Assembly (NCBI RefSeq): GCF_036711975.1
Contig: NC_091968.1
Location: forward strand, 14,446,001-14,510,000
DNA from: Onthophagus taurus
Taxonomy: Eukaryota; Arthropoda; Insecta; Coleoptera; Scarabaeidae
Reading direction: 5' to 3'
DNA length: 64,000 bases
In this document: in pieces, positions 11,294-34,221 of the stretch
Position numbering within the stretch: position 1 is the first letter of the stretch
Layout: each line of letters starts with the position of its first letter
The notes under the pieces: generated by a model
Database searches by the model: none
What the model was told of the DNA's origin: nothing
Seen by the model: only the letters and a program-made list of their open reading frames with translations
Program-made: the position numbers and the translations under genes

Positions 11294-11365
11294 AATGGGA
11301 AAGACTTCAAGGAATCAAAAGGGTTACAAAAAATTTGGATTATTTTATTAAAATTATACGTTCGC

Positions 11366-11647
11366 TCACGTCTGACAAGTTTGCAATCCGCTGAAGAACC
11401 ACTTTTCTCAGCGTATAACAATTAATGTCTGAAATCATCACAAACATACATGAAGAAAACCGATAAAAATTGTATTGATGTAACTTACTTTTCAAATGGT
11501 TTTCTATCACGTCTGACAGGTTTGCAATGCGCTGAAGAACCACTTTTCTCAGCGTATAACAATTAATACCTGAAATCATCACAAACATACATGAAGAAAA
11601 CCGATAAAAATTGTATTGATGTAACTTACTTTTCAAATGGTTTTCTA
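11366..11647 (-). repeat. Tandemly duplicated 141-bp exon/intron unit
   Basis: Two 141-bp direct repeats on the - strand (11507-11647 then 11366-11506), with about four differences. Each contains a 60-nt stretch bounded by GTAAGTTAC and GATTTCAG (11570-11629 and 11429-11488), a convincing GT-AG intron. The 81 nt between them would be an exon. No ATG precedes the first donor for about 160 nt. The unit probably forms spliced leader exons, either of the Pro-rich gene or of a small gene of its own that ends with AATAAA at its TAA. Confidence 0.7.
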
Positions 11648-11844
11648 GCAGAAGGCGATTTCTTCGTGGTCGGAAAAACACAGTTTTTAACAAAATCTGT
11701 TATTATTGTAAACACACTTTTTAAGGAATTATCGTCTTTTGTACACTACTATATCACTCAGCGACTGCTGTACACGGAGTGAGGAGTAACCCACTTTCCA
11801 CTACCTTTAAGTACGGGTTAGTGAACAGGTATTTGTCCGGTCAA

Positions 11845-12048
11845 CTGTCTGGGAATGCGAGGTCGTTTAGGTCTTCTCCTTGTTATCGCCTGTGACTGAA
11901 GGGGAGGTCATACTGTCTGGGAATGCGAGGTTGTCCAGGTTTTCTCCTTGTTATCGCCTGTGGCCCAAGGGGAGGTCATACTGTCTGAGAATGCGAGGTC
12001 GTTCGGACCTTATCTTCGCCCGTGACTCAAGGGGGGTTACAATCCCCC
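11845..12048. repeat. Three 68-bp tandem repeats
   Basis: Units at 11845-11912, 11913-11980 and 11981-12048, each starting CTGTCTG(G/A)GAATGCGAGG and containing TTATCGCCTGTG or a variant, and ending near AAGGGGAGGTCATA. The third is the most diverged and runs into the C-rich arm of the palindrome. Copy B has the same three at 37722-37925. Confidence 0.88.
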
Positions 12049-12247
12049 CTCCCCCCTCCCCCCTCCCCTCCCCCTCCCCTGCCCCACCCCTGCCCCACCC
12101 CCCCGCGCGGGCGGTCGCGCGAAGCGCGGTACGGAGCGGAGCGAAGCGGAGCGTAGTTGAGCCCGCGCGGGGGGGTGGGGCAGGGGTGGGGCAGGGGAGG
12201 GGGAGGGGAGGGGGGAGGGGGGAGGGGGGAGGGGGAAGGGGAGGTGA
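12043..12247. repeat. GC-rich palindrome with C-run and G-run arms
   Basis: A C-rich arm (about 12043-12107) is followed by a GC core with GCGGAGCG repeats and a G-rich arm (about 12165-12247) that mirrors the first. The arms could pair into a long hairpin, or the G-rich strand could form quadruplexes. The rest of the element is AT-rich, so composition changes sharply here. Copy B has a version 38 bp shorter with part of the core missing. Confidence 0.85.
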
Positions 12248-12295
12248 AGAGGTTTCTTTAAATAAAACTCATCAATATGGATAAAAAAATAACAT

Positions 12296-15588: not shown

Positions 15589-15981
15589 TTACACGGATAC
15601 TTCCTTGGTATTTAAACTATCTAAGAAATGCAGACACAATTGTCCACAATTTGTTTGATCTTCTTTTTGATATCGTCGATAATTATACCTCACAATATTT
15701 CTCCCCCCATCCGATATAAAATACTTCTCCACTTCAATCGGTGGTCGTAAATCTCCATAACTGTCAAAGTAGTTAACATTTACACCATCCTTGTTGTAAG
15801 CTGTCCAGTGAGTACCGGGACCCGTACGATTATCAAGATTTATTATCCCACTCTCTCGTTTTCGGATTTTCTTCGGTAAATTGTTTCTCATGTACACCCC
15901 ACGAAAGTTTAACAGATCAAGCGCTCGTGCATATCGCCTTAACTCTACATCCGTTAAAGAATGTTGGGGTATTTTTATTAG
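15589..15981 (-). CDS. Adenain-like cysteine protease, read in the -1 frame of the PLA2 gene
   Basis: Virion maturation protease of the adenovirus/Ulp1 fold. Counting from the GTG at 15895-15897, His is in GTHW (30), the acidic residue in FDSYG (D45), Gln in RRYQ (77) and the nucleophile Cys in NCGQLC (84), with Gln and Cys seven apart as in adenain. About 28 codons upstream (ending NFRGVYMRNNLPK) also look like this family, but there is no ATG for them. The frame is open back to 15996 and overlaps the end of the PLA2 gene at a slippery A_AAA_AAC. It is therefore probably made as a frameshift extension, about 430 residues in total. The fallback is ATG 15889-15891, which would lose conserved sequence. 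Confidence 0.88.
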   Translation of the reverse strand, partial: LIKIPQHSLTDVELRRYARALDLLNFRGVYMRNNLPKKIRKRESGIINLDNRTGPGTHWTAYNKDGVNVNYFDSYGDLRPPIEVEKYFISDGGRNIVRYNYRRYQKEDQTNCGQLCLHFLDSLNTKEVSV

Positions 15982-15987
15982 TTTTTT
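15894..15987 (-). promoter_or_regulatory. Predicted programmed -1 ribosomal frameshift site
   Basis: The slippery heptamer A_AAA_AAC is at 15981-15987, in the correct phase of the PLA2 frame, and is followed at once by its TAA stop. After an 8-nt spacer, ATACCCCA (15965-15972) can pair with TGGGGTGT (15894-15901), and TTTAAC can pair with GTTAAA inside the loop. A slip of -1 enters the protease frame exactly. Both copies keep the arrangement. Confidence 0.75.
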
Positions 15988-16880
15988 GCTACAGTTTTAT
16001 AACCACAACCCTTTTTATATGGATTAATAAACATTCCTGTACCAATTTTGTTCGCCCTCTTGGGGCGTTTTAGTCGCTTTGATTTTCGTGATACCGTTTT
16101 CATGACTAGTCCGCAACCTTGCTTATATGGTTTAATATACAAACCGCTGCCGATCGCTTTTGGTTCCATAGCCCGATTGTGACGTTGGGCTTCTTGTAAC
16201 TGCTCCCTTGCTATTTTTGCTTCGTTTACGGTTTTTGCAATAGCTGCTGCACCTCCGCCTAAAGAACCGAGAGCACCCAAAGCTGCAAGTATTAAGGGTA
16301 AAAAACCTCCCGTCTTGGGAATCTTGATTATTTTTCCGCGCGGTTTAAGTATTCTACCTTGATAAGGTTTCAACAGATTGTAACCCACTTGTACATCTCC
16401 CTTTGTATTCGTACTGTTGGTCTGTGCAATCGCTCGCCGCACTAAGTTCATTGCCTGCGTAAACGACAACTTACCGCCACGTTTCAACTTCTGACGAGTT
16501 GTCCCTCTACGTCTTAGGGCACGAATTTGCATTCCCATACCCATTATTGTTTTTCCTTTCATTATCGTTGACACTAACGCCGACGATAGTCGCTCTCCTA
16601 AGCTTGCGTCTTTACTTCTCAACCGCTCTTTCGCCGTCTTATACAACTCTTTATCGGCTATGTGTCGCTCAGCTAAATTCGATGTCGCTGCGTAGGCAAT
16701 ATCATGCGTTTTACAGGCGTCGTCTAATTTATTCACTCCCCGATCTCCACGAACTAATCTCTTTACCAATTTGGTTCCCGGACCGCAATAATTATAACCT
16801 GGCAAATGTAGTTCTATCGGAAGCTTATTGATTAATGTATTCACAATACCTCGACCAGACCGTTTGCTTGATCGATGCAT
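15978..16880 (-). CDS. PLA2-domain minor capsid protein
   Basis: 300 residues. Residues 26-62 hold a parvovirus VP1-type phospholipase A2 core: calcium loop YCGPG (31-35) and catalytic DDACKTHD with His59-Asp60. In parvoviruses this enzyme breaches endosomal membrane during entry. A basic region (119-137) could bind DNA. A Gly/Ala-rich hydrophobic stretch (192-215) resembles a membrane-active segment. Two copies of G-x-G-x-x-I-x-P-Y-K-x-G-C-G (244-257 and 280-293) close the protein. IMGM-G (112-116) and LGGG-A (207-211) fit adenain cleavage consensus. First gene of the capsid string, and source of the frameshift extension. Copy B differs only at residue 265 (Arg to Leu). Confidence 0.87.
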   Translation of the reverse strand: MHRSSKRSGRGIVNTLINKLPIELHLPGYNYCGPGTKLVKRLVRGDRGVNKLDDACKTHDIAYAATSNLAERHIADKELYKTAKERLRSKDASLGERLSSALVSTIMKGKTIMGMGMQIRALRRRGTTRQKLKRGGKLSFTQAMNLVRRAIAQTNSTNTKGDVQVGYNLLKPYQGRILKPRGKIIKIPKTGGFLPLILAALGALGSLGGGAAAIAKTVNEAKIAREQLQEAQRHNRAMEPKAIGSGLYIKPYKQGCGLVMKTVSRKSKRLKRPKRANKIGTGMFINPYKKGCGYKTVAKN

Positions 16881-19261: not shown

Positions 19262-19707
19262 ATGTTCACAACACTCTTACTTCAATACTGTTGAACACGA
19301 TTTTCTATCTGCTATTTAAAGCATACCTCCTCCGAAGTGGGGTTTTCAATGGCCTCACGTCGTGTAACCTTCATTTCCGGTCACGTACACGGTCAATGTA
19401 ATGGTCACAATTAAGGTTGACTTCAAGGTCTCCGTTGAGATCAAAGTAAAGGTCATTGTTCAGGTCAAGGTTACTGATCAAGGTCATGGTCACTAAACGT
19501 GATCTTGACCTGAGGTGAGCTCAAAGTAAAGGTCATTGTTTAGGTCAAGGTTACTGGTCAACGACCCCCTTTGCAATAGCCGATTCTGGAACCTCCTCCC
19601 AGAACCTCAGGGCAAGGTCAAGGTCATGGTCACTCAACGTGACCTTGGCCTTGACCTTGACCTGAGGTTCTGAGAGGAGGTTCTAGAATCGGCTTTTATC
19701 TACTACT
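19262..19707 (-). repeat. Terminal inverted repeat, right end of copy A
   Basis: 446 bp, ending GGCTTTTATCTACTACT. It matches the left repeat to the base at its inner edge, where ATGTTC begins. Its own hairpin spans 19579-19693 and its TATA-like box is at 19313-19320. It faces the 160-aa gene, with 57 bp of unique leader between. Confidence 0.95.
19579..19693. repeat. Hairpin inside the right terminal repeat of copy A
   Basis: Mirror of the left-end hairpin: arms of 55 nt around a 5-nt loop, 14 nt from the tip. The arm sequence differs slightly from the left one, yet most pairs are kept. Confidence 0.88.
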
Positions 19708-19713
19708 AACGTC
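19708..19713. repeat. Target-site duplication of copy A, right
   Basis: AACGTC directly after the terminus, equal to 1115-1120. The satellite continues with ATAATATCACG in phase. Confidence 0.95.
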
Positions 19714-22168
19714 ATAATATCACGTTTTGGGCACATTTTGTTTTTTATCTCCAACTTGCTCCAACATGTCATTTGACGCCTGAATAACACAAATATGGTC
19801 ATCAGAATTATCGGAACCAAAAGTGATAGAAAGTTCAAACATGGCTCAGAACGGCGTATAACGTCATAATATCACGTTTTGGGCACATTTTGTTTTTTAT
19901 CTCCAACATGGTTCAACATGTCATTTGGCTCCTAAATATCACAAATATGGTCAGCAGAATTATCGGAACCAAAAGTGATAGAAAGTTCAAACATGGCTCA
20001 GAACGGCGTATAACGTCATAATATCACGTTTTGGGCATATTTTGTTTTTTATCTCCAACATGGTTCAACATGTCATTTGGCTCCTAAATATCACAAATAT
20101 GGTCAGCAGAATTATCGGAACCAAAAGTGATAGAAAGTTCAAACATGGCGAAGAACGGCGTATAACGTCATAATATCACGTTTTGGGCACATTTTGTTTT
20201 TTATCTCCAACAATGTGACATTTGGCATCTGAATATCACATATATGGTCGACAGAATTACCGGAACCAAAAGTGATAGAAAGTTCAAACATGGCTCAGAA
20301 CGGCGTATAACGTCATAATATCACGTTTTGAGCACATTTTATTTTTTATCTCCAACATGGTTCAACATGTCATTTGGCGCCTGAATAACACAAATATGGT
20401 CAGCAGAATTATCGGAACCAAAAGTGATAGAAAGTTCAAACATGGCTCAGAACGGCGTATAACGTCATAATATCACGTTTTGGGGACATTTTATTTTTTA
20501 TCTCCAACATGGTTCAACATGTCATTTGGCTACTAAATATCACAAATATGGTCAGCAGAATTATCGGAACCAAAAGTGATAGAAAGTTCAAACATGGCTC
20601 AGAACGGCGTATAACGTCATAATATCATGTTTTGGGCAGATTTTGTTTTTTATCTCCAACTTGCTCCAACATGTCATTTGGCGCCTGAATAACACAAATA
20701 TGGTCAGCAGAATTATCGGAACCAAAAGTGATAGAAAGTTCAAACATGGCTCAGAACGGCGTATAACGTCATAATATCACGTTTTGGGCACACTTTGTTT
20801 TTTATCTTCGACTTGCTCCAACATGTTATTTGATGCCTGAATATCACAAATATGGTCAGCAGAATTATCGGAACCAAAAGTGATAGAAAGTTCAAACATG
20901 GCTCAGAACGGCGTATAACGTCATAATATCACGTTTTGGGCACATTTTGTTTTTTATCTCCAACATGGTTCAACATGTCATTTGGCTCCTAAATATCACA
21001 AATATGGTCAGCAAAATTATCGAAACCAAAAGTGATAGAAAGTTCAAACATGGCTCAGAACGGCGTATAACGTCATAATATCACGTTTTGGGCACATTTT
21101 GTTTTTTATCTCCAACATGGTTCAACATGTCATTTGCTCCCAAATATCACAAATATGGTCAGCAGAATTATCGGAACCAAAAGTGATAGAAAGTTCAAAC
21201 ATGGCTCAGAACGGCGTATAACGTCATAATATAACGTTTTGGGCACATTTTGTTTTTTATCTCCAACATGGTACATCATGTCATTTGGCGCCTGAATAAC
21301 ACAAATATGGTCAGCAGAATTATCGGAACCAAAAGTGATAGAAAGTTCAAACATGGCTCAGAACGGCGTATAACGTCATAATATCACGTTTTGGGCACAT
21401 TTTGTTTTTTATCTCCAACATGGTTCAACAGGTTATTTGGCTCCTAAATATCACAAATATGGTCAGCAGAATTATCGGAACCAAAAGTGATAGAAAGTTC
21501 AAACATGGCTCAGAACGGCGTATAACGTCACAATATTACGTTTTGGGCACATTTTGTTTTTTATCTCCAACATGGTTCAACATGTCATTTGGCGCCTGAA
21601 TAACACAAATATGGTCAGCAGAATTATCGGAACCAAAAGTGATAGAAAGTTCAAACATGGCTCAGAACGGCGTATAACGTCATAATATCACGTTTTGGGC
21701 ACATTTTGTTTTTTATCTCCAACATGGTTCATCATGTCATTTGGCGCCTGAATAACACAAATATGGTCAGCAGAATTATCGGAACCAAAAGTGATAGAAA
21801 GTTCAAACATGGCTCAGAACGGCGTATAACGTCATAATATTACGTTTTGGGCACATTTTGTTTTTTATCTCCAACATGGTTCAACATGTCATTTGGCGCC
21901 TGAATAACACAAATATGGTCAGCAGAATTATCGGAACCAAAAGTGATAGAAAGTTCAAACATGGCTCAGAACGGCGTATAACGTCATAATATCACGTTTT
22001 GGGCACATTTTGTTTTTTATCTCCGACTTGCTCCAACATGTTATTTGGCGCCTGAATATCACAAATATGGTCAGCAGAATTATCGGAACCAAAAGTGATA
22101 GAAAGTTCAAACATGGCTCAGAACGGCGTATAACGTCATAATATCACGTTTTGGGCACATTTTGTTTT

Positions 22169-32929: not shown

Positions 32930-33832
32930 ATGCATCGATCAAGCAAACGGTCTGGTCGAGGTATTGTGAATACATTAATCAATAAGCTTCCGATAGAACT
33001 ACATTTGCCAGGTTATAATTATTGCGGTCCGGGAACCAAATTGGTAAAGAGATTAGTTCGTGGAGATCGGGGAGTGAATAAATTAGACGACGCCTGTAAA
33101 ACGCATGATATTGCCTACGCAGCGACATCGAATTTAGCTGAGCGACACATAGCCGATAAAGAGTTGTATAAGACGGCGAAAGAGCGGTTGAGAAGTAAAG
33201 ACGCAAGCTTAGGAGAGCGACTATCGTCGGCGTTAGTGTCAACGATAATGAAAGGAAAAACAATAATGGGTATGGGAATGCAAATTCGTGCCCTAAGACG
33301 TAGAGGGACAACTCGTCAGAAGTTGAAACGTGGCGGTAAGTTGTCGTTTACGCAGGCAATGAACTTAGTGCGGCGAGCGATTGCACAGACCAACAGTACG
33401 AATACAAAGGGAGATGTACAAGTGGGTTACAATCTGTTGAAACCTTATCAAGGTAGAATACTTAAACCGCGCGGAAAAATAATCAAGATTCCCAAGACGG
33501 GAGGTTTTTTACCCTTAATACTTGCAGCTTTGGGTGCTCTCGGTTCTTTAGGCGGAGGTGCAGCAGCTATTGCAAAAACCGTAAACGAAGCAAAAATAGC
33601 AAGGGAGCAGTTACAAGAAGCCCAACGTCACAATCGGGCTATGGAACCAAAAGCGATCGGCAGCGGTTTGTATATTAAACCATATAAGCAAGGTTGCGGA
33701 CTAGTCATGAAAACGGTATCACTAAAATCAAAGCGACTAAAACGCCCCAAGAGGGCGAACAAAATTGGTACAGGAATGTTTATTAATCCATATAAAAAGG
33801 GTTGTGGTTATAAAACTGTAGCAAAAAACTAA
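32930..33832 (+). CDS. PLA2-domain minor capsid protein, copy B
   Basis: Calcium loop and His-Asp catalytic pair unchanged. The only difference from copy A is Leu for Arg at 265, in the basic linker between the two PYKxGCG motifs. Frameshift heptamer at 33823-33829 and TAA at 33830-33832. Confidence 0.86.
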   Translation: MHRSSKRSGRGIVNTLINKLPIELHLPGYNYCGPGTKLVKRLVRGDRGVNKLDDACKTHDIAYAATSNLAERHIADKELYKTAKERLRSKDASLGERLSSALVSTIMKGKTIMGMGMQIRALRRRGTTRQKLKRGGKLSFTQAMNLVRRAIAQTNSTNTKGDVQVGYNLLKPYQGRILKPRGKIIKIPKTGGFLPLILAALGALGSLGGGAAAIAKTVNEAKIAREQLQEAQRHNRAMEPKAIGSGLYIKPYKQGCGLVMKTVSLKSKRLKRPKRANKIGTGMFINPYKKGCGYKTVAKN

Positions 33833-33916
33833 TAAAAATACCCCAACATTCTTTAACGGATGTAGAGTTAAGGCGATATGCACGAGCGCTTGATCTGTTA
33901 AACTTTCGTGGGGTGT
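33823..33916 (+). promoter_or_regulatory. Predicted -1 frameshift site, copy B
   Basis: A_AAA_AAC at 33823-33829 directly before TAA. The 8-nt spacer is 33830-33837. The possible stem pairs 33838-33845 with 33909-33916, and an inner TTTAAC (33852-33857) with GTTAAA (33897-33902). Identical to copy A. Confidence 0.73.
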
Positions 33917-34221
33917 ACATGAGAAACAATTTACCGAAGAAAATCCGAAAACGAGAGAGTGGGATAATAAATCTTGATAATCGTACGGGTCCCGGTACTC
34001 ACTGGACAGCTTACAACAAGGATGGTGTAAATGTTAACTACTTTGACAGTTATGGAGATTTACGACCACCGATTGAAGTGGAGAAGTATTTTATATCGGA
34101 TGGGGGGAGAAATATTGTGAGGTATAATTATCGACGATATCAAAAAGAAGATCAAACAAATTGTGGACAATTGTGTCTGCATTTCTTAGATAGTTTAAAT
34201 ACCAAGGAAGTATCCGTGTAA
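33829..34221 (+). CDS. Adenain-like protease, -1 frame, copy B
   Basis: 130 residues downstream of the slip point; catalytic residues as in copy A. In-frame GTG at 33913 and ATG at 33919 are the only start-like codons, both inside the domain. Confidence 0.86.
   Translation, partial: LIKIPQHSLTDVELRRYARALDLLNFRGVYMRNNLPKKIRKRESGIINLDNRTGPGTHWTAYNKDGVNVNYFDSYGDLRPPIEVEKYFISDGGRNIVRYNYRRYQKEDQTNCGQLCLHFLDSLNTKEVSV

What the first reader, a model, noticed from the sequence alone, without database searches (positions are those of the whole stretch)
15894..15996. Protease expressed by a -1 frameshift from the PLA2 capsid gene
The conserved start of the adenain-like domain has no ATG. Its frame overlaps the end of the PLA2 frame and is offset by -1. 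Exactly in the overlap, and in correct phase, is A_AAA_AAC followed at once by TAA, one of the most efficient eukaryotic slippery sequences (used in gag-pro of MMTV and HTLV). Eight nt on, an 8-bp stem with an inner 6-bp helix can form by eye. A retrovirus-like way of dosing a capsid protease in a Polinton would be new to me. Copy B has the same site at 33823-33916.
Basis: partly seen in the sequence, partly recalled or inferred. Interest (0 to 1): 0.88.

Follow-up and report, generated by a model that had tools for sequence, protein, structure and literature searches.

The report
Frameshift-made protease in insect Polintons
Polintons, virus-like mobile elements in this (probably beetle) genome, appear to make their capsid-maturation protease only when ribosomes slip back one base at the end of a neighbouring gene, the same dosing trick retroviruses use for their protease.

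Summary
In the window the adenain-like protease frame has no ATG before its conserved start. It lies in the -1 frame of the PLA2 gene, which ends with an in-phase A_AAA_AAC followed at once by TAA. Window copy B is an inverted duplicate and no independent support. The own genome, however, holds at least 12 Polinton families (129 junction loci examined). In 10 of the 12 the protease is in the -1 frame behind an in-phase slippery heptamer: A_AAA_AAC in nine, the HIV-type T_TTT_TTA in one. Synonymous sites between most families are near saturation, yet all seven bases are invariant in the nine. The protease evolves under purifying selection, also before its first ATG. One family (E) lacks the heptamer and has an ATG overlapping the PLA2 stop (ATGA). 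Of 181 database PLA2 proteins, 144 end in Lys-Asn plus 0-2 residues, as AAA-AAC near the stop predicts; 18 of the others have tails that T_TTT_TTA could encode. A downstream RNA stem is strong in the window's family but not shared by all. Frameshifting is inferred, not measured. One preprint hints at hexon-adenain frameshifting; in the open-access library I found no report of it for PLA2-protease.

The parts
15978..16880 (-). PLA2 gene (zero frame), Met to TAA; PLA2-like domain at the N-terminus, two GxG(L/M)(Y/F)I(K/N)PYK(K/Q)GCG motifs at the C-terminus
   Evidence: ORF and translation; Pfam PF08398 E 2.3e-14
15981..15987 (-). slippery heptamer A_AAA_AAC in phase with PLA2
   Evidence: invariant in nine families
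15975..15980 (-). tandem zero-frame stops TAA TAA directly after the heptamer
15589..15981 (-). adenain-like protease read in the -1 frame after the slip; the open frame extends upstream to 15996; no in-frame ATG before FRGVYM
   Evidence: profile match to adenain 1avp and cysteine protease S273R
15965..15972 (-). 5' arm of the outer 8-bp stem, 8 nt after the heptamer
15894..15901 (-). 3' arm of the outer 8-bp stem
15949..15958 (-). 5' arm of the inner helix
15908..15917 (-). 3' arm of the inner helix
32924..33832 (+). PLA2 frame of the second window copy (one residue differs)
33823..33829 (+). slippery heptamer of the second window copy
33814..34221 (+). protease frame of the second window copy, stop to stop

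Best explanation
The protease is made by programmed -1 ribosomal frameshifting. Most ribosomes end at the stop just after A_AAA_AAC and make the PLA2 protein (putative minor capsid / membrane-penetration protein). A minority slip back one base (AAA-AAC re-pairing as AAA-AAA) and continue into the adenain-like protease, giving a PLA2-protease fusion in a fixed low ratio, in the manner of retroviral gag-pro. SHOWN: overlap, phase, heptamer, missing ATG, conservation of the heptamer where synonymous sites are near saturation, replacement by T_TTT_TTA in another family, purifying selection on the protease. INFERRED: that slippage occurs, its efficiency, the fusion protein, its packaging and later self-cleavage. 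In the window's family a stem 8 nt downstream probably stimulates the slip; several other families have no evident simple stem.
For: Nine families keep A_AAA_AAC in phase at the PLA2 tail. Their seven columns are invariant against 2 of 72 flanking columns. Given the encoded residues, codon usage of the window's element gives AAA-AAC after an A-ending codon in all nine with probability 2.8e-9, or 2.8e-7 if the four related families count once (relatedness otherwise ignored). pS is 0.60-0.92 in 12 of 14 family pairs tested (the other two, K-K2 and C1-C2, are close subfamilies), and protease dN/dS is 0.11-0.19 in the six within-clade pairs. Family C has in-phase T_TTT_TTA instead. 111 of 129 distinct junction loci have heptamer, phase and -1 protease. 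The segment before the first ATG is also constrained (pN/pS 0.08-0.67 in eight pairs). 144 of 181 database PLA2 proteins end in KN plus 0-2 residues, 5 more in KN plus 5 or 9; 18 of the 32 without KN have [LVIF]FL in the tail, which T_TTT_TTA could encode. In the first list of 120 the KN expectation from density elsewhere is 0.027 per protein. A_AAA_AAC is among the most shift-prone heptamers on mammalian ribosomes (PMC5009743, passage). Stem in family A z -3.97; an 8-bp stem at the same places in family B with one pair changed on both sides.
Against: No experiment. No covarying stem in families G/K/I/N, and nothing convincing against shuffles in G, K, I, M and C; family B's overall fold is not better than shuffles either (z -0.68). 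18 of 129 loci fail the strict test: six still carry a heptamer in phase with the protease but their PLA2 side (in L092 the protease too) is broken or altered, two are family E, one is family F (long A run, other frame relation), nine have indels, insertions, substitutions or truncations at or near the junction. Two copies (L048, L117) have PLA2 and protease fused in one frame by small indels, so a constant fusion can at least be integrated. 17 database PLA2 proteins have both KN and xFL, so the two sites are not strictly exclusive, and 14 of 32 without KN also lack xFL. DNA-level evidence comes from one genome; other species are seen as proteins only.
Confidence: 0.92

Rival explanations
1. 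Transcriptional slippage: RNA polymerase slips on the A6-A7 (or T7) run, and part of the mRNA carries an indel that joins the frames.
For: The run is homopolymeric in all ten heptamer families; sequence alone cannot separate this from ribosomal slippage.
Against: The run is only six A in A, B, D, H and M; the C at position 7 is invariant in nine families; the run is in the phase tandem slippage needs. Slippage by polymerase needs neither the C nor the phase.
Confidence: 0.04
2. Termination-reinitiation: the ribosome ends PLA2 and restarts in the protease frame at a near-cognate codon.
For: Family E has exactly this layout with a true ATG overlapping the PLA2 stop, ATGA (L079). Most of the 28 database proteases are called with a Met close to or inside the conserved start (whether these are ATG cannot be seen). 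A and B share an in-frame ATA shortly after the heptamer.
Against: Of 115 loci with the heptamer and an open protease start only 2 have a Met before the conserved domain; by eye no near-cognate codon at one position in all families; does not explain the invariant heptamer upstream of the stop or the swap to T_TTT_TTA.
Confidence: 0.02
3. Splicing joins the protease to PLA2 or to another exon.
For: A database gene model (P0170, Exocentrus) joins PLA2 to the middle of the protease. Splice sites were not tested here.
Against: P0170 drops the conserved protease N-terminus; the conserved -1 overlap with the heptamer is unexplained by splicing.
Confidence: 0.01
4. Lys-Asn is conserved as a protein motif of the PLA2 tail (for example a protease recognition or cofactor peptide), and the heptamer follows passively.
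For: KN is conserved in protein terms across many elements; adenovirus uses a C-terminal peptide of pVI as protease cofactor (recalled).
Against: In the nine families only the codons AAA-AAC after an A-ending codon are found, although AAG (27%) and AAT (59%) are common in the element; family C, without KN, carries the other slippery site.
Confidence: 0.01

Closest known systems
Retroviral gag-pro -1 frameshifting at A_AAA_AAC (MMTV, HTLV; recalled)
   Same: Structural protein gene upstream, virion protease in the -1 frame without its own start, same heptamer, possible downstream RNA structure
   Different: dsDNA, adenovirus-like element; protease is a cysteine protease of the adenain type; PLA2 protein instead of Gag; stimulatory structure not shared between families
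Hexon-Adenain ('Hexain') and Penton -1 frameshift suggestion in adintoviruses (PMC11071296, preprint; passages and section 16 read)
   Same: A -1 frameshift joining a capsid gene and adenain in relatives of Polintons, predicted with KnotInFrame
   Different: Other gene (Hexon/Penton, not PLA2); one sentence, worded as hypothetical, no heptamer or conservation given in the section read
Spodoptera frugiperda Maverick 1 and 2 (PMC5803895; 12 of 15 passages and part 1 of 2 of section 11 read; word check)
   Same: Insect Mavericks with a PLA2-domain ORF (CAP) and a 133-aa PRO ORF of about the same size
   Different: Described there as separate ORFs; the words start codon, methionine, overlap, initiation and in-frame do not occur in the main text; its two uses of 'frameshift' concern errantiviruses
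Haloarchaeal-virus g-t frameshifting (PMC5009743 passage)
   Same: Virus with -1 frameshift; HCTV-2 uses A_AAA_AAC
   Different: g-t genes (tail chaperones, recalled) in archaeal hosts, not a protease

Membership tests
-1 programmed frameshift signal (eukaryotic X_XXY_YYZ type) | in-phase slippery heptamer inside the ORF overlap | tested here: met
   111 of 129 loci
-1 programmed frameshift signal (eukaryotic X_XXY_YYZ type) | downstream ORF in the -1 frame, no start codon of its own, under purifying selection | tested here: met
   2 of 115 copies have a Met before the domain
-1 programmed frameshift signal (eukaryotic X_XXY_YYZ type) | stimulatory RNA structure 5-9 nt downstream | tested here: inconclusive
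   strong in A and H, shared helix in B, not conserved in G/K/I/N, none in K, I, M, C
-1 programmed frameshift signal (eukaryotic X_XXY_YYZ type) | measured frameshift product | not testable with these tools
   needs a reporter, ribosome profiling or peptides
Adenain (C5) cysteine protease | sequence-profile match and catalytic His, Asp/Glu, Gln, Cys in order (catalytic roles recalled) | tested here: met
Polinton/Maverick | double jelly-roll major capsid protein | tested here: met
   PF21738 E 4.8e-105
Polinton/Maverick | rve integrase with chromodomain | tested here: met
   PF00665 E 2.9e-13; PF00385 E 0.0024, below its cut-off
Polinton/Maverick | A32-like packaging ATPase | tested here: met
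   PF04665 E 1.8e-7
Polinton/Maverick | protein-primed PolB | tested here: inconclusive
   1089-aa ORF; the only Pfam hit above cut-off is Endonuclease_7, a domain also listed for the POLB ORF of Sf Mavericks
Polinton/Maverick | terminal inverted repeats | tested here: met
   1112-1566 and 19262-19716, 455 nt, 98% complementary

The most novel reading that the evidence does not exclude
Programmed -1 frameshifting, at one of two alternative slippery sites at the end of the PLA2 gene, is the standard and ancient way in which PLA2-bearing insect Polintons make their adenain protease. This is a gag-pro logic that arose independently in a dsDNA virus lineage, with the protease born as a PLA2 fusion that carries it into the particle.
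Probability: 0.78. Interest if true: 0.85.

Novelty: new variant of a known kind. Interest (0 to 1): 0.8.

Why it matters
It would mean that the virion protease of a large group of Polintons can be overlooked or misannotated for lack of a start codon, and that two unrelated lineages (retroviruses and Polintons) arrived at the same dosing of a maturation protease against a structural protein. Tight dosing and delivery of a protease makes most sense if particles are assembled, so conserved frameshifting is indirect evidence that these elements are or were real viruses, an open question for Polintons. It is directly testable with a small reporter.

Tried and rejected
A universal downstream structure: rejected; G/K/I/N show no covarying stem, K, I, M and C no helix or simple H-type pseudoknot better than shuffles (the pseudoknot scan is a home-made stacking-energy search). 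Extra synonymous constraint just after the heptamer: p = 0.04 in G/K/I/N, p = 0.81 over eight families, so not claimed. Copy B as independent support: rejected. Foreign DNA for the junction: two protease scans and one PLA2 scan of viral contigs gave nothing usable (L119 is a match of 34 query residues at 44% identity and was dropped), and one scan of genome contigs gave none. Internal start at FRGVYM: rejected because the stretch before it is conserved. Pseudogene decay: rejected by 46 identical, open copies among 150 scored matches and low dN/dS.

Full report
WHAT IS THERE. The window carries a Polinton (twice): double jelly-roll capsid protein (PF21738, E 4.8e-105), rve integrase (E 2.9e-13), A32-like ATPase (E 1.8e-7) and 455-nt terminal inverted repeats at 1112-1566 / 19262-19716. 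Its PLA2 ORF (minus strand; PF08398, E 2.3e-14) ends GCA AAA AAC TAA TAA. The protease frame overlaps it in the -1 frame from 15996 and has no ATG before the conserved FRGVYM. The 13-mer AAAAAACTAATAA occurs twice in the window, once per copy, against 0.01 expected in shuffles. The two copies are near-perfect inverted duplicates, so this counts once.

IS IT CHANCE IN THIS ELEMENT ALONE? Not strongly excluded. 13 ORFs with 4383 codons hold 31 in-phase X_XXY_YYZ heptamers, two of them A_AAA_AAC. The case rests on comparison.

OTHER FAMILIES IN THE SAME GENOME. The own 291-Mb genome was searched with six protease queries; each scored 150 of 258-267 candidates, so counts are lower bounds. I fetched 131 junction loci there. 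With the two window copies, and without four duplicates (L119, from elsewhere, was left out), 129 distinct loci were tallied. I sort them by protease similarity into 12 families (my labels A-I, K, M, N). Heptamer in phase at the PLA2 tail with the protease in -1: 111 of 129 (82 A_AAA_AAC and 24 T_TTT_TTA with at least 100 open protease codons; one, L107, scored on A_AAA_AAA but also carrying A_AAA_AAC; four with a broken protease). Many of these are recent copies of A, B and C, so families are the fair unit: 10 of 12 have a slippery site. Nine have A_AAA_AAC (A, B, D, G, H, I, K, M, N; D and N are single loci, M has it in one of two, D is degraded); one, C with subfamily C1, has T_TTT_TTA, and C1 also an in-phase A_AAA_AAA nearer the stop.

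THE EXCEPTIONS. 18 of 129 fail. L085, L086, L092, L117, L128 and L130 still carry a heptamer in phase with the protease, but the PLA2 side is broken or altered (L092's protease is broken too; L128 differs only in the motif I tested for; in L117 the two are fused in one frame by an indel). L044, L048 (natural in-frame fusion), L054, L055, L091, L123, L124, L125 and L126 carry indels, insertions, substitutions or truncations at or near the junction; L125, for example, has the heptamer mutated in a copy with stops in the protease. Family F (L099) has a long A run and a different frame relation. Family E (L079; degraded second copy L127) has no heptamer; its protease ATG overlaps the PLA2 stop as ATGA. 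It coincides with loss of the heptamer, which suggests an alternative coupling (termination-reinitiation) rather than a refutation. Of 115 loci with heptamer and open protease start, two (L080, L093) have a Met before the conserved domain.

SELECTION. In 12 of 14 family pairs tested, synonymous sites are near saturation (pS 0.60-0.92 in either gene; the exceptions are K-K2 and C1-C2), while the protease has dN/dS 0.11-0.19 in the six within-clade pairs and 0.31 in the one between-clade pair not saturated (family D was not included). The segment between heptamer and first ATG is also constrained (pN/pS 0.08-0.67 over eight pairs, six of them 0.26-0.41), so translation enters from upstream of it. 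Across nine families the seven heptamer columns are invariant; of 72 flanking columns two are. Given the residues, codon usage of the window's element gives the observed codons with probability 2.8e-9 (nine families) or 2.8e-7 (six clades); this ignores remaining relatedness.

OTHER SPECIES, PROTEIN LEVEL. Two database searches with PLA2 queries listed the best 120 of 834 and of 2154 hits, 181 distinct proteins including one of this genome, among them Onthophagus taurus, Popillia japonica, Aquatica leii, Anoplophora glabripennis, Tribolium castaneum and Exocentrus. 144 of 181 end in Lys-Asn plus 0-2 residues, three in KN plus 5, two in KN plus 9, 32 lack KN there. In the first 120 it is 106 within the last eight residues, against 0.027 expected per protein. 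In the 144 the residue before KN is always one that has a codon ending in A (S, P, K, Q, A, T, R, I). Of the 32 without KN, 18 have [LVIF]FL in the tail, which T_TTT_TTA could encode; the other 14 are cut short, have Lys runs, or fit neither. KN and xFL avoid each other (Fisher p 6e-7, relatedness ignored) but 17 proteins have both. Three of the 28 database proteases show K-K-L just before the conserved start (P0005, P0007, P0025), as -1 reading through AAA-AAC-T gives; most others are called from a later start and cannot show it. This is inference from proteins; no foreign DNA was obtained. The C-terminus of the Onthophagus protein P0033 is identical to family B, so the host is probably an Onthophagus dung beetle (inference).

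STRUCTURE. In family A an 8-bp stem begins 8 nt after the heptamer and encloses a 10-bp helix (MFE -28.7, z -3.97). Family B has an 8-bp helix at the same two places (4 of 200 shuffles as good), with one pair changed on both sides (A-U to G-C, read), though its overall fold is not better than shuffles (z -0.68). H has a strong fold (z -4.8 on 60 nt, -4.2 on 100) and a candidate pseudoknot (0 of 60 shuffles as good), though its best single helix is matched by 15 of 200 shuffles. G, K, I, M and C show nothing convincing, N is borderline, and G/K/I/N have no covarying stem. The low-energy fold in D (z -6.6) starts about 67 nt downstream. So the slippery site is general, the stimulator is not demonstrated as general.

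THE PROTEASE. Pfam gives no hit. A profile of 22 sequences matches cysteine protease S273R (E 0.00097; African swine fever virus, recalled) and adenovirus adenain 1avp (E 0.0036) with the His, Asp/Glu, Gln and Cys positions aligned.

LITERATURE. In the open-access library only one paper holds both 'polinton' and 'slippery': PMC11071296, which suggests -1 frameshifts in adintovirus Penton genes and 'a similar relationship' for 'Hexon-Adenain (Hexain)' fusions, worded as hypothetical (passages and section 16). PMC5803895 describes insect Mavericks with PLA2 (CAP) and PRO as separate ORFs (passages and part of section 11). PMC10120064, PMC3671162, PMC4028283 and PMC8097293 were seen as passages, which report no programmed frameshift. 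Other searches gave listings only or nothing: (20 of 41 papers listed). Subscription papers are mostly not held. That MMTV and HTLV use A_AAA_AAC for gag-pro is recalled; that the heptamer is among the most shifty is from PMC5009743 (passage).

VERDICT. Best explanation: programmed -1 ribosomal frameshifting from PLA2 into the protease, probability about 0.92, not yet measured.

Noticed in passing
L079 (own genome C11:12462038-12463885) and L127: Family E: no slippery heptamer; the protease ATG overlaps the PLA2 stop as ATGA, a possible termination-reinitiation variant of the same coupling.
   Followed up: partly
L048, L117: Natural single copies in which small indels put PLA2 and protease in one frame.
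   Followed up: partly
window 1120-48401: The whole Polinton is present twice as a near-perfect inverted duplication around a 10.4-kb stretch of the 152/145-nt satellite, a palindrome of about 47 kb.
   Followed up: no
window 15981-16160: The PLA2 tail repeats the motif GxG(L/M)(Y/F)I(K/N)PYK(K/Q)GCG; similar motifs are repeated in several homologs. Possibly a protease cofactor or membrane motif.
   Followed up: no
P0121, P0149, P0152: Polinton PLA2 proteins stored under bacterial records or labels (Enterobacter, Pseudogracilibacillus, 'ribosomal protein S5'), probably insect contamination or wrong names.
   Followed up: no
P0170 (Exocentrus adspersus): A database gene model joins the PLA2 tail to the middle of the protease, dropping its conserved N-terminus: a likely misannotation caused by the frameshift.
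   Followed up: partly
L056, about 67 nt after the heptamer: A 16-bp inverted repeat inside the family D protease frame, next to extra residues (FRGYTPWKFDRN) not seen in the other proteases of the alignment.
   Followed up: no
window 11361-11650 and 11871-12284: A repeat of about 141 nt and a G+C-rich stretch (64% against 39% for the element) inside the element, of unknown nature.
   Followed up: no
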